This document shows, piece by piece, positions 1-8,582 of a stretch of 49,591 bases of DNA (positions are counted from its first letter, which is position 1; each line of letters begins with the position of its first letter). The stretch lies in contig CALKFR010000014.1 of the NCBI GenBank assembly GCA_938084555.1, positions 1 through 49,591 of the forward strand, in the 5' to 3' direction. Position numbers and translations under genes: made by a program. Below the pieces are notes generated by a model. It ran no database searches, had not been told where the DNA came from, and saw only the letters and a list, made by a program, of their open reading frames with translations. This stretch comes from an uncultured Flavobacteriaceae bacterium (GTDB lineage Bacteria > Bacteroidota > Bacteroidia > Flavobacteriales > Flavobacteriaceae).

Positions 1-219
1 TGCTGCTTTCACAGATAACATTTTTTCCATAGAATCATTATCAATTTCAATATCAAACTCATCTTCTACATCTAAAATAACATCTACCAAATTCGCTGAA
101 TTAATCTTTAAGTCATTAATAAAATCTGTTTCCTCAGATAGGTTATTAAATGCATTTTGATCTTGAACATAGGGCTTTACAATTTTTTGTAATGAAATAA
201 TAAGGTCTTCTCTTGTCAT
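1..219 (-). CDS. Acyl carrier protein (3' end outside window)
   Basis: Reads leftwards from an ATG at 219 and stays open to the window edge, so 73 residues are visible and the C-terminus is missing. The visible part has the ACP four-helix pattern: an amphipathic first helix (residues 1-15), then the phosphopantetheine site in the INSANLVDVIL stretch, where Ser is the expected attachment residue, followed by the acidic helix VEDEFDIEI. The usual DSL around the serine is NSA here, so it is a divergent ACP rather than the fatty-acid AcpP. It starts 10 nt after the ketosynthase stop and is the last visible gene of the polyketide operon. It probably carries the acyl chain for the neighbouring ketosynthase, dehydratase and enoyl reductase. 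The ACP call is firm; its private role in this operon is inferred from position. Confidence 0.82.
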   Translation of the reverse strand, partial: MTREDLIISLQKIVKPYVQDQNAFNNLSEETDFINDLKINSANLVDVILDVEDEFDIEIDNDSMEKMLSVKAA

Positions 220-229
220 GAATTCTTTT

Positions 230-1498
230 TTAATATTTCTTAAAAATAACACATCCATTTACATCTCCAAAACCAAAACTTGCTTTTGCAATGATCTGTA
301 GTTTTTTTGGTGTGTATTTGGTTGGTATTTTTTCTTTTGAAATTAATTTTAAAATAGCTGGATGCACTTCCTCGCAATTAATGTTTGGAAAAATAAATTG
401 GTGTTTTAATTGCAAAATTGTTGCCACATTTTCTATAGCGCCCGCTGCAGCAAGACAATGACCAACCATAGATTTTAAAGAGTTAATCATTGGAAAATTT
501 AGTCCGGTTCTTCCTAGGGCTTTTGTCCAATTTTCTATTTCTATGGGATCTTTTATAGTGGCTGTTAGATGCCCATTAATTGCATCAATTTCTGATGGTG
601 CTATATTTGCGTTATTTATTGCGTCTACAATACATTTTTGCACCGCTTCAGAATTTGGAGCTGTCATGGTTCCGCCATTTCTTTGCCCTCCAGAATTGAT
701 GTTTCCTCCCAATACCTCAGCATAAATAGTTGCTTTTCTTTCCAAAGCACTCTCTAAAGTTTCTAATACCAGTGCTCCAGCCCCACTTCCAGGCACAAAG
801 CCTGATGCATCTGCACTCATGGGCCTAGATCCTTCTTCTGGGTTTTCGTTGTGCTTGTAGGTCATCACTCTCATTGCATCAAATCCACCCCATATATAGG
901 CTCCGTCATCACTACAGCTTCCAACTAGCATTCTTTTTGCCTTTCCTGTCTGAACACGTTCAAAGCCCATTAGTAAAGCTTCTGTGCCAGTAGTACAGGC
1001 AGATGAATTGGTAGTTACTTGATTTCCCACTCCTAGAATACCCCCTAAATAAGCACTAATGCCGCTTGCCATGGTTTGAACAACAACGGTGCTCCCTAAT
1101 CTTTTTACCTTTTGATCGTCTAGTTTATACACAGCCTCTCTAAATTTTTCTACTCCAGAGGTACCTGCTCCAAAGACCAATCCAGAGTCATAGTCAACAG
1201 GTAGGTTTGTATCAATATCAAAGCCTGCATCTTTCCATGCGTCTATACCTGCAATACATCCATATAAAATTCCAGCACTATCAAAACCACGAAGTTGAAG
1301 AGGTGTTAAATACTTATTTTTCATCTCCTCTGAAACGGGAGGAATTCCTCCAATACAGCAAGAAAATTTTAAATCTTGGAGTTTTTGATGAAATGTAATT
1401 CCAGATCTTCCTGCTTGAATTGCTGCTAAAAAGTTGTCTAAGCCAACAGCGTTTGGTGCTACAACCCCCATCCCTGTAATGACAACTCTATGTTTCAT
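230..1498 (-). CDS. Beta-ketoacyl-ACP synthase (FabF-like)
   Basis: A 422-residue thiolase-fold condensing enzyme of the FabF/KAS II type. The catalytic triad is visible: Cys168 in SSACTTG, His310 in the NGHLTAT loop (normally AHGT.T) and His347 in SMVGHCLAAAG, with Lys342 just before it. Length is typical of FabF. It should condense malonyl-ACP with an acyl chain, extending the chain by two carbons. The modified first-histidine loop and the position between a divergent dehydratase and a divergent ACP argue for a specialised synthase, not the housekeeping FabF. Its ATG at 1498 lies 11 nt inside the end of the dehydratase gene, so the two are probably translationally coupled. Substrate chain length cannot be read from the sequence. 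Confidence 0.88.
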   Translation of the reverse strand: MKHRVVITGMGVVAPNAVGLDNFLAAIQAGRSGITFHQKLQDLKFSCCIGGIPPVSEEMKNKYLTPLQLRGFDSAGILYGCIAGIDAWKDAGFDIDTNLPVDYDSGLVFGAGTSGVEKFREAVYKLDDQKVKRLGSTVVVQTMASGISAYLGGILGVGNQVTTNSSACTTGTEALLMGFERVQTGKAKRMLVGSCSDDGAYIWGGFDAMRVMTYKHNENPEEGSRPMSADASGFVPGSGAGALVLETLESALERKATIYAEVLGGNINSGGQRNGGTMTAPNSEAVQKCIVDAINNANIAPSEIDAINGHLTATIKDPIEIENWTKALGRTGLNFPMINSLKSMVGHCLAAAGAIENVATILQLKHQFIFPNINCEEVHPAILKLISKEKIPTKYTPKKLQIIAKASFGFGDVNGCVIFKKY

Positions 1499-1940
1499 TA
1501 TTCATTGATTTTAACATGCCTGAAATAGTTCCTCTACAAACCAACTCATTATTATCATTAAACAATTCTACCTTACATTTTAGTTTGTTAAATCTAAAAT
1601 AAATTTTTTCTGAAACTACTTTTACACGTTCTTGTGGACGAACTGGTAAAAAGAAATCAATATGATTTGAGGTTAATGCAATTTGTGGTTTTTTTGAAGT
1701 AGTAATTTCATCTCTTAATAAATATATCCCTAAACAAACCACCCCGATTTGGGCCATTACCTCTGTTAAAATAACACCTGGTGTTATTGGATTATTTTTA
1801 AAGTGTCCTTGGTAAAAATACTCGTCTTTTTTAAATGTATAAAATCCCTCCGCACCATGTTCTGATAAAGACCCTATTTCGTCTACAAACAAAAAGGGTG
1901 TTTGATAGGGTAAGAGCCGTATGATATTTTTGTTGTTCAA
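1488..1940 (-). CDS. FabZ/FabA-like 3-hydroxyacyl-ACP dehydratase
   Basis: A 150-residue hot-dog-fold protein. The catalytic histidine is His46 in the YQGHFKNNPITPGV loop (FabZ: FxGHFPxxPIMPGV) and the catalytic acid is Glu60 in EVMAQ (FabZ: EAMAQ). The N-terminal LPYQTPFLFVDE matches the FabZ LPHRYPFLLVD signature, with His changed to Gln at a non-catalytic place. It should dehydrate 3-hydroxyacyl-ACP to the trans-2-enoyl form. The start is a TTG at 1940, 5 nt after the preceding stop; the next in-frame ATG would delete the active site, so the TTG is required. The 3' end overlaps the ketosynthase gene by 11 nt. In the operon it fits the dehydration step between ketosynthase and enoyl reductase. 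Confidence 0.82.
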   Translation of the reverse strand: MNNKNIIRLLPYQTPFLFVDEIGSLSEHGAEGFYTFKKDEYFYQGHFKNNPITPGVILTEVMAQIGVVCLGIYLLRDEITTSKKPQIALTSNHIDFFLPVRPQERVKVVSEKIYFRFNKLKCKVELFNDNNELVCRGTISGMLKSMNNET

Positions 1941-1945
1941 ATTGT

Positions 1946-2740
1946 TTAGCTTATATGTTCTCCTCCGTCTACAGGAATAATTGCACCATTAATCCATGAA
2001 GCTTCATCTTTTGATAAAAGATAGACCACATTGGCAACATCTTCTGGAGCTGTTAATTTATGAAATGGATTGCGTAATAAAGAATGTTTTTTTATTTCAT
2101 CGCTACCAGGAATCATTCTTAAAGAAGCTGTATCTGTAACTCCTGCTTGAATACAATTTGCCCTTATCCCGAAGGGTGCAAACTCTAAAGCAATGTTTCT
2201 TGTAATGGCTTCTAGCGTAACTTTTGCTGCGGATACAGCAGCATAATTTTTCCATGCTTTTGAGTTTCCTTCACTGGTAAAACTAAGTATTCGTGCATCA
2301 TCTGAAAACAATTTAGCTTCAAAAATAGCTTTAGTCCAATCATATAAACTAATCCCCATGGCTTGGATTGTTAATTGAAAATCATCTGTCTGTAAAGTTG
2401 GTGTTGTTTCTGAAATCATGGGCTTTAGATTTCCTTTAGCCACACTGTGTACAAGTGTTTTAATAGAGCCACCTTTTAATTCTTTTTCTAAATCTTCTAT
2501 CAACGCAACTCTCTTTTCTGAGTGAAAAGCATCTGTATTATAACTAATAAAATCAATACCTTCTTTGGTAATTTTTTTAAATTCTTTTTCTATTTCTTCT
2601 CGTTGTGACCTAGAATTTCTATGTACAATACAAATATTCATCCCATGACTCGCTAACTTTTTCGCCGTTGCTAGACCTAAGCCGCTAGAGCCCCCTAAAA
2701 TTAGAGCCCATTCATTTTTATCTTTAAATTCTTTTACCAT
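1946..2740 (-). CDS. SDR-family oxidoreductase resembling FabL enoyl-ACP reductase
   Basis: A 264-residue Rossmann short-chain dehydrogenase. The glycine-rich cofactor motif GGSSGLG is at about residues 16-22. The active site is Tyr166-x6-Lys173 (NYAAVSAAK), not the YxxxK of classical ketoreductases. A Y-x6-K spacing is the hallmark of enoyl-ACP reductases FabI and FabL, and the downstream LEAITRNIALEFAPFGIR and VTDTASLRMIPG segments resemble FabL. It therefore probably reduces trans-2-enoyl-ACP to the saturated chain. The final VDGG motif is normal for SDRs. The ATG at 2740 overlaps the end of the type III PKS gene by 7 nt. Automated annotation would likely label this simply SDR; enoyl reductase is my inference from the spacing. 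Confidence 0.72.
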   Translation of the reverse strand: MVKEFKDKNEWALILGGSSGLGLATAKKLASHGMNICIVHRNSRSQREEIEKEFKKITKEGIDFISYNTDAFHSEKRVALIEDLEKELKGGSIKTLVHSVAKGNLKPMISETTPTLQTDDFQLTIQAMGISLYDWTKAIFEAKLFSDDARILSFTSEGNSKAWKNYAAVSAAKVTLEAITRNIALEFAPFGIRANCIQAGVTDTASLRMIPGSDEIKKHSLLRNPFHKLTAPEDVANVVYLLSKDEASWINGAIIPVDGGEHIS

Positions 2741-3786
2741 TCTAATAGTATTCTTTGTGCAGAAAAGCCTGGCCCAAAACTTAGCATCAGTCCTTTTTCT
2801 CCGGGTTGTCTATCTCTATCCATAAATCGCTCTAAAACGTATAAAACTGTTGCGCTAGACATATTTCCATACAGTCTCAGAACCTCTTTAGTGTCATTGA
2901 TGTTCTTCCCTAAAGATCCAAATAAATCTTCTACTGTCTGAACAATTTTCTTGCCTCCGGGATGAAAAATTAAAAGATTTATATCTTCAATAGTTAGATG
3001 ATTTCGCTCTAAAAAAGGATGGACAATCATTGGAAAGTGGTTGGAAATAGTTTCTGGAACAGACTTGTCTAAAATCATTTGTAAGCCTGTATTCACCAAT
3101 TTAAATCCCATCATATGGGTTGCATTATAAAAATGATACATGGCTTCATCTAAAATTTTTGGTCCCTTGTCTTCTTCATAAGATGATAAAATAACACTTG
3201 CGGCACCATCTCCAAAAATTGCAGCACTTACAATATTTACCATAGAAAAATCTTCTAGCTGAAAAGTTGCTGTTGGAGATTCTACCGCTACCACTACCGC
3301 TCTTTTATTTGGGTTGGCTTTTAAAAAGTTTTTTGCATAAATGATCCCTGAAACTCCCGCCGCACATCCCATTTCTGTAACCGGAAGTCTCACTATATCT
3401 TGTTTCATTTGCAAGCTATTAATTAGATAAGCGTCTACGGAGGGTATCATGATTCCTGTACAACTCACAGTAATAATATAATCAATATCTGTGGGTTGTA
3501 AACTTGCTTTTTCTAATGATTTTTTCAATGATTGCTCTGCCAAAACTTTGACCTCTCTAGCATAAATAGCGTTTTTTTCTTCAAAAGAAGAATTTGAAAA
3601 AACTTCTTCAGCATCCATAATAGAATACCGTCTGTCTACACCAGCTCCTTCAAAAAGTTTTAAAACTTTTCGTTGAAATCTTTTTTCCTGGCCCTGCATC
3701 CATAGTTTTACAAAAGGAATAATGTCTTTAGTTTCCCTAGTGTGTTTTGGTAGCTGTTTCGCTACAGATAATATTTTTACGCTCAT
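2734..3786 (-). CDS. Type III polyketide synthase (chalcone synthase-like)
   Basis: A 350-residue homodimeric-type ketosynthase of the chalcone/stilbene synthase superfamily. The complete Cys-His-Asn triad is visible: Cys141 in TEMGCAAGVSG, His275 in IFHPGGKK and Asn308 in LYGNMSSATV. The C-terminal SFGPGFSAQ loop corresponds to the family GFGPG loop. Length is typical for bacterial members. These enzymes take an acyl starter and condense malonyl-CoA units, then cyclise to a pyrone, resorcinol or similar ring. The FAS-like genes immediately downstream suggest a long or modified acyl starter and hence an alkyl-pyrone or alkylresorcinol type product. A methyltransferase precedes it by 27 nt and the SDR overlaps its end, so it sits at the centre of the operon. 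Ring type and chain length cannot be deduced. Confidence 0.9.
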   Translation of the reverse strand: MSVKILSVAKQLPKHTRETKDIIPFVKLWMQGQEKRFQRKVLKLFEGAGVDRRYSIMDAEEVFSNSSFEEKNAIYAREVKVLAEQSLKKSLEKASLQPTDIDYIITVSCTGIMIPSVDAYLINSLQMKQDIVRLPVTEMGCAAGVSGIIYAKNFLKANPNKRAVVVAVESPTATFQLEDFSMVNIVSAAIFGDGAASVILSSYEEDKGPKILDEAMYHFYNATHMMGFKLVNTGLQMILDKSVPETISNHFPMIVHPFLERNHLTIEDINLLIFHPGGKKIVQTVEDLFGSLGKNINDTKEVLRLYGNMSSATVLYVLERFMDRDRQPGEKGLMLSFGPGFSAQRILLEW

Positions 3787-3813
3787 AATATTTCCTAAAA
3801 AACAGGAATTCTT

Positions 3814-4536
3814 TTAATGAATAGGATCTTTTCTTAAAATCCATAAATAGCGAAAAGCCCATTTCCATTGAATAGAAAAAGGCGCTTCCACTTGTGTTAA
3901 AATAGCCTCTAACTCTTTTCTTTTAAAAGCTCTTAAAATAGATGTTAAACCATCTTCTCTAACCATCTTGTTTTTAATGAAAAGCCCTATCAGTTTAAAA
4001 AGATAGTATGCAAGTCTATGCCTATGCAAATCATTCACAACCGCTCCAATTGTAGCTTTTTGAACCGTTGGCTTTAAAAAAGAGATGAGTTCCTCGTTTT
4101 TAAAATGGTGTAAAAACAAGGTGCACAAGACAACATCATATGCCTGCTTTTTAAACTCCTCTGAAAAAATGTCAATCGTTTCAAAACTCAACTCTGGATA
4201 ATCTATAGAAAGTTCTCTTGCATATTCTATAGCTGCATCATTTGCATCTATTCCTATAAGTTTAAACTTGTAGTTGTTCTTTCTGCCAAACTTAGCAATA
4301 TCTCTTAAAATATCTCCGTGTCCACAACCTAAATCAACCAAGGTAATTGTCTTCTTTTTTGACGATGTTTTAAGTAATTTTTTTAACCCTTTAATAGTTA
4401 CTGAATTTCCTCCTAGAAACCGATTAATGGTTTCAAGTTTATCTAAGGTATCTCTAAACATATCTCCTTTAATAGAAAAATCATCCATCATTTCTGATGC
4501 TGAAGAACGGCGAGATGTATCAACTAAAAAACTCAT
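3814..4536 (-). CDS. Class I SAM-dependent methyltransferase
   Basis: A 240-residue protein with the SAM-binding motif VDLGCGHGD at about residues 67-75, followed by IGIDANDAAIEYAR (acidic loop binding the ribose) and the motif VVLCTLFLHHF. The C-terminal third is basic with a hydrophobic stretch (LAYYLFKLIGLFI), which could contact membrane or a lipid-like substrate. It lies between the FAD oxidoreductase (4-nt ATGA overlap at 4533-4536) and the type III PKS. A PKS-methyltransferase-flavoprotein trio resembles the Streptomyces srsABC phenolic-lipid operon, so O- or C-methylation of the polyketide ring is a reasonable guess. The methyltransferase fold is clear; the substrate is inferred. Confidence 0.85.
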   Translation of the reverse strand: MSFLVDTSRRSSASEMMDDFSIKGDMFRDTLDKLETINRFLGGNSVTIKGLKKLLKTSSKKKTITLVDLGCGHGDILRDIAKFGRKNNYKFKLIGIDANDAAIEYARELSIDYPELSFETIDIFSEEFKKQAYDVVLCTLFLHHFKNEELISFLKPTVQKATIGAVVNDLHRHRLAYYLFKLIGLFIKNKMVREDGLTSILRAFKRKELEAILTQVEAPFSIQWKWAFRYLWILRKDPIH

Positions 4537-5669
4537 AATGGGCGCAGCTGTTTTCCGTGGGTAAATTTGATTATTTTAGGCAATAAAGAAGGTGTTGTTT
4601 TTAAAATTGAGTATGCTATTTGAGAAATGATTTGATTTCTAAATAACCATGCGAAAAAATGGCCTGCTTTTAATCGTGTTTTAAATTCTTTATTCCAATC
4701 TCTAAGATACTGTTTTTCTAAGCCTTCTCTAGTTTTTATTTCGCCATTTAAAAACTGAAGTATTCGAGAGCTTGCTAATTTTGCGCTAGAAATAGCCATT
4801 CCCATTCCATTACCACATAGCGGGTGAATCATTCCTGCGGTATCACCACACATAATGATATGATCTTCTACTGGTTTTTTAGTTTGAAAAGAAACTTGAC
4901 TAATAGTTAGTGGTTTTTCAAAAACTGGTGTTGTTTCTTTAAATATTTTTCTAAGATGTTCATTTTTAAAAACAACTTTTTCTTGAAAATCTGTAATATT
5001 TTTATGTTTTTTAAACGAACGATATTCTGTAATATAACAAACATTAATAGCATTGTTTTCTACTTTAGATACACCACAATAGCCTCCTTTAAAATTATGT
5101 AGCCCCACCAAATTTTCTGGGAATACGCCTTTTACGTGTGTTTTCACCGCCAAGTATGGCGATTTTTTTTGAATGAATTTCCGCTTCATTTTTTGATCTA
5201 ATGAAGACCTTTTCCCAAAAGCGCCTATTGTAATTTTGCTTTGAAATACTCCTGAACTTTTTGTTAAAATTGTGAAAGAATTTTTTTTAAATTCAATAGA
5301 ATCTACCGTGTCTTTTAAAATTTTAACGCCATTTAAGCATGCTTTTTTTACCAATAAGTCATCTAAAAAATATCGGCTCATTCCAAAACCTCCCAGAGGC
5401 AATTCCCCTTTTATTAAATTGCTTTTTGTAGTACTTATATGAACTTTTGTGATCTGTTTTGCGCCTTCATGTATTGGATTAATTCCTAAAGAATTTAAAT
5501 ATGGCAGTACTTCATTAGAAATATATTCTCCACATACTTTGTGTTTTGGATACGTGTTTTTTTCAATTAACAACACCTGTTTCTTGTGTTTAGACAAATG
5601 AATAGCACTGGTTAATCCAGCCAATCCACCTCCCACTATAATTACATCAAATGTTGTTGTTGTTTTCAA
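4533..5669 (-). CDS. FAD-dependent oxidoreductase, geranylgeranyl reductase-like
   Basis: A 378-residue flavoprotein. The N-terminal dinucleotide-binding motif VGGGLAG is at residues 12-18, and the KVCGEYIS element at about residues 44-51 is characteristic of the geranylgeranyl reductase/FixC/halogenase-like branch of the PHBH superfamily. A second FAD motif, CGDTAGMIHPLCGNG, lies in the last third. Such enzymes either reduce isoprenoid double bonds or hydroxylate rings and lipids. Within a type III PKS operon, ring hydroxylation (compare SrsC) or reduction of an unsaturated chain is likely. It starts with TTG at 5669, two nt after the YceI stop, and overlaps the methyltransferase gene by 4 nt. 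There is no ATG near this position. The exact reaction is unknown. Confidence 0.8.
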   Translation of the reverse strand: MKTTTTFDVIIVGGGLAGLTSAIHLSKHKKQVLLIEKNTYPKHKVCGEYISNEVLPYLNSLGINPIHEGAKQITKVHISTTKSNLIKGELPLGGFGMSRYFLDDLLVKKACLNGVKILKDTVDSIEFKKNSFTILTKSSGVFQSKITIGAFGKRSSLDQKMKRKFIQKKSPYLAVKTHVKGVFPENLVGLHNFKGGYCGVSKVENNAINVCYITEYRSFKKHKNITDFQEKVVFKNEHLRKIFKETTPVFEKPLTISQVSFQTKKPVEDHIIMCGDTAGMIHPLCGNGMGMAISSAKLASSRILQFLNGEIKTREGLEKQYLRDWNKEFKTRLKAGHFFAWLFRNQIISQIAYSILKTTPSLLPKIIKFTHGKQLRPL

Positions 5670-5672
5670 TTG

Positions 5673-6203
5673 TTATTTGGTTGCAGAATATTCTACTTGA
5701 ATTTTTACATTATTAGACAAAACAAAACTACGCCCTCCTAAATTAAAATCTTTACGGTTTAGTAGCATTGAAGCATTTAGGTTTAGTATTGAATTGTCTT
5801 CAAAAACTTCTAAAGGAATTTCCATCTCTTTAACAATCCCTTTGATGCTTAACCCTGCAAAAAGGGTAATATTACCATTCACATCCTTTGTAATTTTAGA
5901 GGATTTTGATATAATTTTTTCATGATTTAAGGCATCAAAATAATCTGTTTCTAACAAGTGTTTATCTCTTGCTTCAATGCCAGTAAAAATTGTATTCACC
6001 ATAATGGTTGCACTAATATAGCTATTAGATAAATCTTTGGTGTTTAAATTTGTCTTTATATCTGTATTTTTAAAACCTCCGTCTACAGGTATTCCAAAAT
6101 TTTTAATTTTAAATAAAACAGTGGTTTTGTTCTTGTCTTGAACCCATTCTTGAGAGGATAAAGTTAATGTGGCTAACAAAAAAAGTATAAGTATTTTATT
6201 CAA
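5673..6203 (-). CDS. YceI-family periplasmic lipid-binding protein
   Basis: A YceI-like lipocalin-fold protein of about 176 residues. It has a short hydrophobic signal peptide (MNKILILFLLATLTLSS), then the family features: early IKNFGIPVDGGF, central ATIMVNTIFTGIEARDKHLL, the DYFDA step and a C-terminal NRKDFNLGG. I place the start at a TTG (6203), because the frame runs further upstream only through the 3' end of the preceding gene and the TTG gives a clean export signal. YceI proteins bind polyisoprenoids or other amphiphilic lipids in the periplasm. Its tight placement in the polyketide operon (2 nt before the next gene) suggests it binds or ferries the lipid product; that role is inferred. 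Confidence 0.8.
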   Translation of the reverse strand: MNKILILFLLATLTLSSQEWVQDKNKTTVLFKIKNFGIPVDGGFKNTDIKTNLNTKDLSNSYISATIMVNTIFTGIEARDKHLLETDYFDALNHEKIISKSSKITKDVNGNITLFAGLSIKGIVKEMEIPLEVFEDNSILNLNASMLLNRKDFNLGGRSFVLSNNVKIQVEYSATK

Positions 6204-6217
6204 AATTTTAATATTAT

Positions 6218-7327
6218 TTAATCTAATAGGTTTGCCAATTCTTTTCCAACCTGAGAACCAATAGCAACACCCATTCCGCCTAGACGTATACCACAATAAC
6301 TATTTTCAGAAAGTTGTTTTACGATTGGCTTTTTCTGATTTCCAACCCCCATAATTCCACTCCAACGATGTGTGATTTCAAAAGCTGTATTTGGTAAAAT
6401 AGTTGTTTTTAAAAGGTGTTCTAATTTATTTTGAATGCGTGTAGTTTCTCCAAATTGTGTTGTTTCTTCTGTCTCAAAATCTAAATTTCTTCCACCTCCC
6501 AGTAAAATTCTATTATGTATATTTCTAAAATAATAATACCCTTCCTCCAAATGAAAAGTTCCCTTAATGTGTAGGTTTTTAATTTGACTTGTAATTAACA
6601 CTTGAGCTCTTGCAGGCGAGATAGGTTCTTTGAGAAGTTCTTTAGAAAAACCATTAGTAGCAAAAAACACTTTAGAGGCTAAAACCTCTCCTTGACTTGT
6701 GTTAATCTTTACTTGATTTGTACGCTCTGAAAACCCTAGGACAGAAATGTTGTTTAAAACTTTTACTCCTTTCTCTTGTGCTTTTTTTAACAATTGTGAA
6801 ACCATTTTTCCTGTATCTATCTGGGCTTCAAATTTGTTTACCAAATAAGCTGGAACAATATTTTTGAAATTAAACTTATTGCGTACTGTAGAAAAAACGC
6901 TTTCCTTAAAAAGAGGAAGTAATAACTTGTTTAAATCTTCTGTTTTATTTTTACACTTTTCAAAAAAGCCTTCATCATTAAATAATTCATACCCGTAATT
7001 TTGTTGATAATCTATATTTGTATCTCCTAGTAAGTTTCTAAGAAGCTGAAGACCCTCCCACCTCTTCTTTATCAACTGAAATACCTCTTCTTCTGTGTGG
7101 TTTTTGAGATCACTTAACAATTCTGAAGTGCTCCCAAAACAAGCAAATCCAGCATTTTTTGTACTTGCTCCTTGTGGAAGTAATCCTTTTTCTAAGACAA
7201 TAACTTTTGATTTTGGGAAGCGTTCTTTTAAATGAATTGCACAGTTTAAACCAACAATTCCACTTCCAACAACAACAAAATCATTGTTAGTAAACCATTC
7301 TTTATATTCCCAATAACTGTAATTCAT
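6218..7327 (-). CDS. DAO-family FAD-dependent oxidoreductase
   Basis: A 369-residue flavoprotein of the D-amino-acid oxidase/glycine oxidase fold. The FAD motif VVGSGIVGLNCAIHL begins at about residue 19, GASTKNAGFACFGS follows (the family's xTxxNAGxxxG element), and the C-terminus ends in RLGGMGVAIGSQVGKELA, the usual second FAD contact. The substrate could be a secondary or primary amine. It appears to be the first gene of the lipid operon: its ATG at 7327 follows a 172-bp gap holding a GNAT remnant, and its stop is 14 nt before the YceI start. Whether it belongs to the polyketide pathway or is just co-transcribed is not clear, since DAO enzymes are not typical tailoring enzymes for type III polyketides. 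Confidence 0.72.
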   Translation of the reverse strand: MNYSYWEYKEWFTNNDFVVVGSGIVGLNCAIHLKERFPKSKVIVLEKGLLPQGASTKNAGFACFGSTSELLSDLKNHTEEEVFQLIKKRWEGLQLLRNLLGDTNIDYQQNYGYELFNDEGFFEKCKNKTEDLNKLLLPLFKESVFSTVRNKFNFKNIVPAYLVNKFEAQIDTGKMVSQLLKKAQEKGVKVLNNISVLGFSERTNQVKINTSQGEVLASKVFFATNGFSKELLKEPISPARAQVLITSQIKNLHIKGTFHLEEGYYYFRNIHNRILLGGGRNLDFETEETTQFGETTRIQNKLEHLLKTTILPNTAFEITHRWSGIMGVGNQKKPIVKQLSENSYCGIRLGGMGVAIGSQVGKELANLLD

Positions 7328-7354
7328 TACATTAATTTTTCAAAACAATTGCTG

Positions 7355-7507
7355 TTATCCATATGGGCATACTGTCAGTAATTTTGAATCCTTGTATATC
7401 CCAGACTTTTTATAAAACTTTATTGCCTCTTGCTGACGATTTCCTGTCTCTAAAATACACTTTTTAAAGCCTTGTAAAAAATGAAAAAGCTGTTTGTTTT
7501 TAAAACT
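7355..7507 (-). pseudogene. Remnant of a GNAT acetyltransferase C-terminus
   Basis: On the minus strand an open stretch of 50 codons runs to a TAA at 7357-7355 and has no start codon. It overlaps the end of dinB by 8 nt. Its translation contains LETGNRQQEAIKFYKKSGI, which matches the conserved C-terminal part of GNAT N-acetyltransferases (typically LETG..Q..A..LY...GF). The remainder of the GNAT domain, including the acetyl-CoA loop, is absent because dinB occupies the upstream sequence. This is best read as the surviving 3' end of a gene lost by deletion, lying between dinB and the lipid operon. It is too short to be functional. Confidence 0.6.
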
Positions 7508-8582
7508 CTAACTTCAATTGAACCCAAACAGGTTCTTTTTTTTCTGTGTCTAAGTTAGAAAAAGATATGCCTAATAGCCTTACAGAATTTTTAAACTTTT
7601 CTTGGTATACAAGTTCTTTTATAATATGCATAATTTCATCTTTTGTTTGCATAAAAATTCTAGCGGTTTTACTTCTTGTTTGTTGAGTAAAATCACTATA
7701 TTTTATTTTTAAAGTAAGTGTTTTCCCTCTTGTATTTGTGGCTATCATTCTTTTTTCTAATTCTTCTGCAATTTTACATAGTCTCTCTAACATAAACACT
7801 TCTGAGGAAATATTTTTAGAAAAAGTTCTTTCTGCAGCAATTGACTTTCGAACTCTATTTGGTTTTACTAAACTATTGTGAATGCCTCTCACAATATTAT
7901 AATAGAAACTTCCTGACTTCCCAAAGAGTTTTGTTAACTCCTCCAATGATTTTTCCTTTAAATCTGATCCTTTAAAGATACCTAAGTTGTTCATTTTTGC
8001 AGCAGTTACCTTACCAACTCCATAGAATTTATTAACAGAGAGTCCTTCTAAAAAAGGAATGACCTCTTCAGGGTTAATGGTTTTTTGACCATTTGGTTTA
8101 TTAATATCTGACGCTACTTTGGCTATAAATTTATTAACTGATATTCCTGCTGATGCTCTTAGCTGTAATTCATTAAAAATACGATCTCTAATTTCTTTGG
8201 CAATTAAACTTGCTGATGGGTTACCTTTTTTATTTTCAGTAACATCTAAATACGCTTCATCCAATGAAAGCGGTTCAACTAAATCTGTATAATCATTAAA
8301 GATTTGTCTAATCTTAACTGAAATTTCTTTGTATCTAGAAAATCTTGGTTTTACAAATATTAGATGAGGGCATTTTTTTTTGGCTAAGACACCACTCATT
8401 GCAGACCTTACACCAAACTTTCTAGCCTCATAGCTTGCTGCAGCAACAACCCCTCTTTCGCTACTACCGCCTACTGCAATTGGTTTTCCAATTAAATCTT
8501 TGTTATCTAACTGTTCAACTGATGCGTAAAAAGCATCCATATCTACATGAATTATTTTTCTATTTGCTAGTTTTGGTTCCAC
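7500..8582 (-). CDS. dinB: DNA polymerase IV (Y-family, DinB)
   Basis: A 360-residue Y-family translesion polymerase. Palm-domain metal ligands are visible in IHVDMDAFYAS (Asp14 and Asp16 region) and LSLDEAYLD (Asp108, Glu109). The helix-hairpin-helix thumb (about residues 178-200, FYGVGKVTAAKMNNLG) and the little-finger domain follow. Length matches the E. coli enzyme (351). It bypasses damaged bases with low fidelity. The start is a GTG at 8582; an in-frame TAA lies four codons upstream and the next ATG would cut into the catalytic site, so GTG is the only workable start. The gene is downstream of gdhA behind a terminator and looks monocistronic. I saw no obvious SOS operator. Confidence 0.93.
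   Translation of the reverse strand: MEPKLANRKIIHVDMDAFYASVEQLDNKDLIGKPIAVGGSSERGVVAAASYEARKFGVRSAMSGVLAKKKCPHLIFVKPRFSRYKEISVKIRQIFNDYTDLVEPLSLDEAYLDVTENKKGNPSASLIAKEIRDRIFNELQLRASAGISVNKFIAKVASDINKPNGQKTINPEEVIPFLEGLSVNKFYGVGKVTAAKMNNLGIFKGSDLKEKSLEELTKLFGKSGSFYYNIVRGIHNSLVKPNRVRKSIAAERTFSKNISSEVFMLERLCKIAEELEKRMIATNTRGKTLTLKIKYSDFTQQTRSKTARIFMQTKDEIMHIIKELVYQEKFKNSVRLLGISFSNLDTEKKEPVWVQLKLEF

What the first reader, a model, noticed from the sequence alone, without database searches (positions are those of the whole stretch)
1..7327. A type III PKS joined to a dedicated fatty-acid-synthase-like module in one operon
Seen: nine same-strand genes with gaps of 28 nt or less or overlaps encode two flavoproteins, YceI, a methyltransferase, a type III PKS (intact C141/H275/N308), a Y-x6-K enoyl reductase, a dehydratase, a ketosynthase and an ACP. 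Known: in Azotobacter ars and Streptomyces srs, type III PKSs make phenolic lipids from fatty acyl starters, with srsB/srsC methylating and oxidising the ring. Inference: this operon makes a self-supplied acyl starter and converts it to a methylated, oxidised alkyl-pyrone, resorcinol or quinone-like lipid. I know of no characterised flavobacterial pathway with this gene set.
Basis: partly seen in the sequence, partly recalled or inferred. Interest (0 to 1): 0.75.

Follow-up and report, generated by a model that had tools for sequence, protein, structure and literature searches.

The report
Flavobacterial resorcinol-lipid operon with acyl-supply cassette
Many marine flavobacteria share an uncharacterised operon in which a ring-forming enzyme, two ring-modifying enzymes and a private set of fatty-acid-building enzymes sit together, so they probably make an unknown phenol- or quinone-like lipid.

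Summary
In detail: nine co-directional genes, junctions of at most 27 nt, cut by the contig edge inside the ACP gene. Relatives continue with a phosphopantetheinyl transferase and, in some, an MMPL exporter. The operon is a conserved unit: FAD-MT-PKS-dehydratase-ketosynthase-ACP stand in this order in 95 of 103 orthologous loci, and in 149 family genomes the dedicated ketosynthase occurs in 47, all among the 48 with this PKS. Best reading: the cassette supplies an acyl-ACP starter to the type III PKS, which makes an alkylresorcinol that the methyltransferase and flavoprotein turn into a methylated hydroxy/quinone lipid, as in srs, pkq and hid. YceI and the first flavoprotein are lineage-variable accessories. 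No chemistry was tested; the surveys I saw count type III PKS clusters but name no product.

The parts
6218..7327 (-). DAO-family FAD oxidoreductase, accessory; first gene of the operon here
   Evidence: PF01266 E 1.1e-40; present in 66 of 103 orthologous loci
5673..6203 (-). YceI-like protein with a signal-peptide-like N-terminus, accessory (listed ORF 5673-6296)
   Evidence: PF04264 E 3.2e-23; TTG start at 6203; detected in 27 of 103 loci; a lipocalin-like plus OmpA pair in 13 others
4533..5669 (-). FAD monooxygenase-like enzyme, predicted ring hydroxylase; core
   Evidence: Pfam FAD_binding_3 E 4.4e-11; AlphaFold model mean pLDDT 88.2 matches phenol halogenases and PHBH-fold monooxygenases; 103 of 103 loci
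3814..4536 (-). class I SAM methyltransferase; core
   Evidence: PF13847 E 4.6e-14, PRK06202 model E 2.2e-45, below its cut-off; 103 of 103 loci
2734..3786 (-). type III polyketide synthase; C141/H275/N308; F228 at what I take to be the ArsB W281 position; core
1946..2740 (-). SDR, probable enoyl-ACP reductase (FabL-like, Y166-x6-K173); missing in some relatives
1488..1940 (-). FabZ-like 3-hydroxyacyl-ACP dehydratase (H46, E60); core
   Evidence: PF07977 E 1.2e-13; residues invariant in 114 of 114 rows; 99 of 103 loci
230..1498 (-). FabF-like ketosynthase (C168/H310/H347), distinct from housekeeping FabF; core
   Evidence: 99 of 103 loci
1..219 (-). acyl carrier protein, C-terminus cut by contig end (listed ORF 1-258); Ser54 of the listed ORF in an NSA motif; core
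   Evidence: NCBIfam ACP models, best E 3.3e-10; Ser invariant in 109 of 109 rows; window starts at contig base 1; 97 of 103 loci

Best explanation
The operon is the type III PKS-methyltransferase-FAD-monooxygenase trio of phenolic-lipid/polyketide-quinone pathways with a dedicated type II FAS cassette attached. KS, dehydratase and (here) enoyl reductase, working on their own ACP, primed by the PPTase seen next door in relatives and helped by host FabG, FabD and FabH, build an acyl-ACP. The PKS takes that chain, adds about three malonyl units and closes an alkylresorcinol ring. The methyltransferase and the FAD enzyme then methylate and hydroxylate the ring to a methylated hydroquinone/quinone-like lipid, which YceI (or a lipocalin in other genera) binds in the periplasm and, in some genera, an MMPL pump exports. 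Shown here: gene content, order, co-inheritance, conserved catalytic residues, PKS/KS/FAD phylogeny, repeated absence of the ER. Inferred: direction of flow (cassette to PKS), number of extensions, ring type, tailoring order, quinone nature, transport.
For: Order FAD-MT-PKS-FabZ-KS-ACP in 95 of 103 loci with over 4.5 kb on both sides of the PKS midpoint. Dedicated KS orthologue (57-78% identity; next matches shown 31-37%) in 47 of 149 family genomes, all within the 48 with the PKS orthologue. On the PKS tree all 47 rows with the cassette fall in one clade of 49 (support 100); of 27 Bacteroidia rows outside it none has the cassette in the stretch fetched. The trio T3PKS-MT-FAD stands without a cassette in the 12-13 kb shown of plasmids of Roseomonas, Deinococcus and Psychrobacter. 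Literature seen as passages: srs and pkq trio gives alkylresorcinol, then benzoquinone (PMC9927152); hid trio (PMC8086630); PKSs of planctomycetal trios give alkylresorcinols in heterologous expression (PMC10896814); ArsB/ArsC accept acyl-ACP (PMC6274091). F228 (48 of 49 rows F, 1 Y) is aromatic, as Trp281 of ArsB is. FAD (and, less clearly, MT) genes of Bacteroidia operons with a different T3PKS lineage are close kin, so one tailoring pair serves two T3PKS lineages. The same cassette lies beside DarB in L197 and L198.
Against: No metabolite data. Linkage is not perfect: L128 shows none of FabZ, KS and ACP in the stretch fetched, and in G138 no KS orthologue was found. The cassette also occurs without this PKS: G261 has it beside DarB while its type III PKS, of another lineage, lies on another contig, and L194-196 have it beside GT2 genes with no T3PKS, so its acyl product need not go to a type III PKS. 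The residue rule is weak: CylI, a resorcinol maker, has Leu there; Pks11, called an alkylpyrone maker in PMC6274091 but listed among resorcinol formers in PMC5916927 (passage), has Trp. In the planctomycete study co-expression of MT and FAD gave only a methylated resorcinol and the FAD enzyme's role stayed open. The FAD fold also fits halogenases and a reductase-like protein. No KR, AT or KAS III in the conserved part. In L148, L150 and L152 no dedicated ACP was detected.
Confidence: 0.62

Rival explanations
1. The PKS makes a 4-hydroxy-6-alkyl-2-pyrone (as Bps/ArsC/Pks18), and MT and FAD decorate a pyrone lipid.
For: Closest PDB sequence is M. tuberculosis Pks11, deposited as alpha-pyrone synthesis PKS; in the PKS tree the clade lies in the half that also holds Pks11 and the T3PKS-ICMT (Bps-like) rows.
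Against: The Bps-like loci checked carry an ICMT (L166 by Pfam, L139 by annotation), not this MT/FAD pair; the MT/FAD trio is tied to resorcinols in the passages read; the cyclisation position is aromatic, not Gly as in ArsC, though the Bps-like rows also have an aromatic residue there, Trp in 8 of 8.
Confidence: 0.18
2. The cassette does not feed the PKS: it makes a separate fatty acid or polyene that is joined to, or co-exported with, the PKS product (as flexirubin joins a polyene acid to a resorcinol).
For: Flexirubins combine a polyene acid with a dialkylresorcinol (abstract of PMC3992019 in the listing); the ER is absent in 32 of 112 loci; the cassette occurs without this PKS beside DarB or GT2 genes.
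Against: No acyltransferase, ligase or aromatic-acid gene recurs in the conserved core; in 149 family genomes the KS never occurs without the PKS.
Confidence: 0.15
3. The FAD enzyme is a phenol halogenase, so the product is a halogenated resorcinol.
For: Top Foldseek hits are the halogenases Bmp2, PltA and related proteins.
Against: The halogenase motif GWxWxIP (recalled) is absent from the protein; 3-hydroxybenzoate 6-hydroxylase scores close behind and UbiI-type hydroxylases also match.
Confidence: 0.05

Closest known systems
srs (Streptomyces griseus) / pkq (Mycobacterium smegmatis, Streptomyces MNU77) type III PKS-methyltransferase-oxidoreductase operons
   Same: Same three enzyme types next to each other; alkylresorcinol, then methylated benzoquinone in those systems (PMC9927152, passages)
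   Different: No FAS cassette or PPTase mentioned in the passages read; Trp where this clade has Phe; gene order FAD-MT-PKS here
ars operon of Azotobacter vinelandii
   Same: Type III PKSs with a private fatty-acid synthase that hands over acyl chains on ACP (PMC6274091, passage)
   Different: Ars uses large type I FAS proteins (recalled for ArsA/ArsD) and two PKSs; here discrete type II-like enzymes, one PKS, plus MT and FAD
hid (hierridin) operon of cyanobacteria and the planctomycetal trio
   Same: Methyltransferase, oxidoreductase and type III PKS operon; C14 acyl-ACP starter proposed for HidC (PMC8086630, passage)
   Different: No FAS genes in the clusters as described in the passages read
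cyl (cylindrocyclophane) cluster
   Same: Free-standing ACP and chain-building enzymes feed a type III PKS (CylI) that makes a resorcinol (PMC8086630, passage)
   Different: Type I PKS modules and chlorination; CylI only distantly related, on a long branch
dar / flexirubin clusters (DarA, DarB)
   Same: Resorcinol lipids of Bacteroidota; two genomes carry this same cassette beside a DarB
   Different: Ring made by DarA/DarB, not by a type III PKS

Membership tests
srs/pkq/hid-type phenolic-lipid trio | Type III PKS with complete Cys-His-Asn triad | tested here: met
   119 of 119 rows
srs/pkq/hid-type phenolic-lipid trio | Adjacent methyltransferase and FAD oxidoreductase | tested here: met
   Window and 103 of 103 loci
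srs/pkq/hid-type phenolic-lipid trio | Trp at the ArsB-281 position, reported conserved in several resorcinol makers (PMC5916927, PMC9927152) | tested here: not met
   Phe in 48 of 49 rows, Tyr in 1; still aromatic; not a strict rule, since CylI has Leu
srs/pkq/hid-type phenolic-lipid trio | Alkylresorcinol or quinone product | not testable with these tools
   Needs extracts or enzyme assay
ars operon (Azotobacter) | Type III PKS fed by a dedicated FAS in the same operon | tested here: inconclusive
   Dedicated FAS-like genes present and co-inherited; feeding not testable
ars operon (Azotobacter) | Type I (multidomain) FAS subunits | tested here: not met
   Discrete KS, DH, ER, ACP genes; the type I nature of Ars FAS is recalled
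bps (alkylpyrone synthase + ICMT methyltransferase) | ICMT next to the PKS | tested here: not met
   Class I SAM methyltransferase here; ICMT seen in L166 (Pfam) and L139 (annotation) of a separate T3PKS lineage
dar/flexirubin | DarA/DarB enzyme pair | tested here: not met
   The PKS matches the DarB model only at E 1e-4 and DpgA far better; no DarA model among the matches shown for the nine proteins
aryl polyene / type II PKS | KS with a chain-length-factor partner and a ketoreductase | tested here: not met
   One KS and one SDR of enoyl-reductase type in the window; no second KS in the conserved core of relatives

The most novel reading that the evidence does not exclude
A portable acyl-supply cassette (KS, dehydratase, optional enoyl reductase, ACP, often a PPTase) has been plugged into at least three lipid pathways in Bacteroidota (type III PKS, DarB and a GT2-linked one). 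In marine flavobacteria it feeds a separate type III PKS lineage that makes a second, non-isoprenoid quinone or resorcinol lipid, and loss of the reductase gene switches some lineages from a saturated to a polyunsaturated chain.
Probability: 0.25. Interest if true: 0.75.

Novelty: new variant of a known kind. Interest (0 to 1): 0.58.

Why it matters
Type III PKS clusters made up 10.74% of the biosynthetic clusters found in 2,680 Flavobacteriaceae genomes (PMC10734526, passage); two of the four surveys seen call such clusters likely novel or unlike any MIBiG entry (PMC9860996, PMC9323603) and the other two only count them. How many of those are this operon was not shown, but it is in 48 of 149 family genomes. 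This analysis gives its full extent, its core and accessories, its separate PKS lineage and a natural series with and without the enoyl reductase. If it makes a quinone, common marine bacteria would have a redox lipid besides menaquinone; if a resorcinol membrane lipid, its private cassette would let chain length and saturation be set apart from ordinary fatty acids.

Tried and rejected
Chance or mis-annotation: rejected, the order is conserved over loci whose PKSs have 52-96% identity to the window's. This PKS and the other Bacteroidia MT/FAD-linked T3PKSs as one clade: rejected by AU test, p 9.8e-7 (42 rows, quick tree, group named after the first tree was seen, long branches present). ER merely moved elsewhere: no match at E<=1e-45 in 5 of 48 PKS-positive family genomes, G039, G063, G103, G119, G127 (the tool scored at most 17 SDR candidates a genome). 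ER remnants in the PKS-FabZ gap of the ER-less loci: none at E<=1e-3. Halogenase reading of FAD: unlikely, see rivals. PKS structure: model only fair (mean pLDDT 76, under 50 around F228), not used. Plasmids: no record with a PKS relative of 60% identity or more. Rfam on the window: nothing at gathering scores. Promoter search: not done after a pattern error.

15 of 118 orthologous loci had too little flank and were left out of the 103. Presence was called with HMM score cut-offs that I set. The 8 of 103 loci that miss the full order are L037 (an insertion after the ER, then the contig ends inside FabZ), L063 (several genes in broken frames), L128 (no FabZ, KS or ACP in the stretch), L148, L150 and L152 (ACP not detected), L186 (operon split, rest in L187) and L189 (FabZ not detected). 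Some outside T3PKS loci are short (L153, L166, L169: 6.7-8 kb). UbiA was tested by Pfam in three loci only.
Full report
OBSERVATION. Nine minus-strand genes fill 1-7327. Family scans identify, in transcription order, a DAO-type flavoprotein, a YceI-like protein, a FAD-binding enzyme, a class I methyltransferase, a type III PKS, an SDR whose best NCBIfam model is FabL (below cut-off), a FabA/Z-like dehydratase, a ketoacyl synthase and an ACP. All junctions are 27 nt or less, three overlap. The window begins at base 1 of a contig of a 62.84%-complete draft genome, so the ACP gene is cut by the assembly.

WHAT LIES BEYOND THE EDGE. In the closest relatives (L052, L055, L190; PKS 94-96% identical) the ACP is followed by a gene matching my PPTase model; the family was identified by Pfam (ACPS) in L039 and L045. 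A PPTase was found in 85 of 103 orthologous loci, an MMPL-family exporter in 14.

CONSERVATION. The PKS was found in 49 of 149 genomes of the family at E<=1e-20; one of these (G072, 31% identity) belongs to another lineage, leaving 48, the window's own included. In 395 genomes of the class 110 had a hit, 26 of them at 52% identity or more; the other 84, at 26-37%, are other type III PKSs. In 58 genomes of the genus 29 had a close orthologue (81% or more), the window's own and one partial match included. Of 118 orthologous loci, 103 had over 4.5 kb on both sides of the PKS midpoint: FAD, MT and PKS are in 103 of 103, FabZ in 99, KS in 99, ACP in 97, ER in 75; FAD-MT-PKS-FabZ-KS-ACP stand on one strand in this order in 95 (the eight exceptions are listed under Tried and rejected). 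The neighbours vary: DAO in 66, YceI in 27, a lipocalin-like plus OmpA pair in 13. In 32 of 98 loci with enough upstream sequence an accC-like biotin carboxylase precedes the operon on the same strand; in L039 its neighbours are a KAS III and a biotinyl carrier by Pfam, so malonyl-CoA and priming genes lie next door there.

CO-INHERITANCE. The same 149 genomes were searched with the KS. Orthologues (57-78% identity) occur in 47 genomes; the next matches shown, housekeeping FabF-like, have 31-37%. All 47 lie within the 48 PKS genomes. In the 48th, G138, an insertion follows the ER, the contig ends inside FabZ, and no KS orthologue was found elsewhere. In two of the 47 PKS and KS lie on different contigs: G066, at contig ends, and G144, where the operon really looks split. 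The KS tree separates the cassette KSs from six housekeeping FabF rows of two other families (support 100).

PHYLOGENY. On a tree of 87 type III PKSs all 47 rows with the cassette fall in one clade of 49 rows (support 100); the other two are L037 (G138) and L186 (G144). The 27 other Bacteroidia rows fall elsewhere: a lineage next to an ICMT (Pfam in L166; annotated in the plasmid row L139; same-length ORFs in the others, not scanned), a larger group mostly next to MT and FAD (preceded by a UbiA prenyltransferase in the three loci scanned, L174, L177, L180), and L185, beside THNS. None has the cassette in the stretch fetched. One of these genomes, G261, does have it on another contig beside DarB. 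The tree has long branches and quick support values only. The MT/FAD-linked lineage and the cassette lineage are rejected as one clade (AU p 9.8e-7), yet their FAD enzymes join in a group of support 95 within one Bacteroidota clade (99), with most f29-family members of the cassette clade branching outside that group; the MT tree is less clear but also mixes the two. So the same tailoring pair works with two type III PKS lineages, which favours a common ring type (inference).

RESIDUES. PKS C141/H275/N308 in 119 of 119 rows, KS C168/H310/H347 in 113 of 113, FabZ H46/E60 in 114 of 114, ER Y166/K173 in 87 of 87, ACP Ser in 109 of 109. The residue that decides between resorcinol and pyrone in ArsB/ArsC (Trp281/Gly284, PMC6274091, passage) is Phe in 48 of 49 cassette-clade rows and Tyr in one; it is Trp in 19 of 19 rows of the larger Bacteroidia group and in 8 of 8 Bps-like rows (one of them a plasmid), Leu in Pks18, CylI and the Ectocarpus enzyme, Tyr in THNS and L185, Trp in Pks11 and Steely1. 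In trORAS a Phe252 to Gly change disturbs resorcinol formation (PMC8086630, passage); whether Phe252 is this very position I did not check. Equivalence to ArsB rests on my alignment and on recalled chalcone-synthase numbering, since the ArsB sequence was not at hand. The rule is not absolute (CylI; Bps-like rows with Trp).

ENOYL REDUCTASE. Of 112 loci with PKS and FabZ, 32 lack the ER; well-supported branches force at least 8 changes, parsimony gives 12. Since the deepest cassette-clade loci have it, most are simplest read as losses. In 21 of the 32 the PKS-FabZ gap is 63 nt or less; in six Polaribacter loci an IS200-like transposase relative sits there (its Pfam score is below the curated cut-off). 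Five of 48 family genomes have no ER match at E<=1e-45. One genome without the PKS, G031, keeps the ER alone at a locus whose flank matches the lipocalin/OmpA type. The cassette is thus kept without its ER, either with FabI filling in or with an unsaturated chain as result; I cannot tell which.

CASSETTE ELSEWHERE. A phylum search with the KS (395 genomes) gave 38 genomes at E<=1e-90, five of them at only 46-52% identity. All five were inspected. L197 and L198 have ER-FabZ-KS-ACP-PPTase divergent from a DarB (NCBIfam resorcinol_DarB, above cut-off; DarG also above cut-off in L197, not scanned in L198). L194-196 have FabZ-KS-ACP (L194 also an ER) with a glycosyltransferase of family 2 and no T3PKS in 18 kb; an acetyltransferase (GNAT) domain above cut-off was found only in L195. 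DarB makes dialkylresorcinols, so two different ring-forming chemistries stand beside the same cassette, which fits a role as acyl supplier; the GT2 loci show that the acyl group can also have another fate.

MECHANISM. The trio alone is known: in Streptomyces griseus and Mycobacterium smegmatis it makes alkylresorcinols that are methylated and oxidised to benzoquinones, the latter described as alternate respiratory carriers under low oxygen (PMC9927152, abstract and passages); in cyanobacteria hierridins (PMC8086630, passages); in planctomycetes the PKSs gave alkylresorcinols in heterologous expression and MT plus FAD added one methyl group, the FAD enzyme's role staying open; one of those clusters includes a lipid/isoprenoid-binding protein (PMC10896814, passages). 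ArsB and ArsC can take acyl chains from ACP (PMC6274091, passage). The FAD enzyme's predicted fold matches phenol halogenases and PHBH-type monooxygenases. I therefore propose acyl-ACP supply, alkylresorcinol synthesis, methylation and ring hydroxylation to a quinone-like lipid. That YceI proteins bind isoprenoid lipids or quinones is recalled. None of the chemistry was tested.

LITERATURE. PMC7440613 and PMC10734526 count type III PKS clusters in Flavobacteriaceae; PMC9860996 and PMC9323603 call those of Aquimarina unlike MIBiG entries or likely novel (passages only). Ten searches of open-access full text showed me no paper that characterises the flavobacterial operon; most hits were seen as listings only, and subscription papers and preprints are not held, so this is not proof.

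VERDICT. A real, conserved, apparently uncharacterised pathway; a new variant of the known trio. Interest 0.58: the kind of product is foreseeable, but the private cassette, its occurrence beside DarB, the repeated ER loss and the partner exchange are informative and directly testable.

Noticed in passing
window 7330-7474, minus strand: Remnant of a GNAT acetyltransferase gene (only the C-terminal part matches, in two frames, with a stop) between dinB (7500-8582) and the operon; the nearest relatives L052 and L190 carry an intact 149-aa copy there.
   Followed up: partly
L060, L069, L071, L090, L092, L098 between PKS and FabZ: An IS200-like (Y1_Tnp, below Pfam cut-off) transposase relative occupies the slot where other loci have the enoyl reductase.
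   Followed up: partly
L174, L177, L180: Other Bacteroidia carry UbiA prenyltransferase-T3PKS-MT-FAD runs of genes, perhaps for prenylated resorcinol or quinone lipids; no cassette there.
   Followed up: partly
L197, L198: The same ER-DH-KS-ACP-PPTase cassette stands divergent from DarB; in L197 DarG and ABC-transporter genes lie there too.
   Followed up: partly
L194, L195, L196: Cassette next to a glycosyltransferase of family 2 in another class of the phylum: a possible unknown glycolipid.
   Followed up: no
L199 7657-8451 (G031): Operon lost except for the enoyl reductase, which stays after the lipocalin/OmpA pair.
   Followed up: no
ACP rows, Ser54 of the window's listed ORF: The phosphopantetheine motif is NSA instead of the usual DSL (recalled) in nearly all 109 rows (N in 108, A in 106).
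   Followed up: no
L162 3114-8128: A Hymenobacter plasmid has a relative of the FAD enzyme beside an isonitrile synthase and a dioxygenase, with no T3PKS.
   Followed up: no
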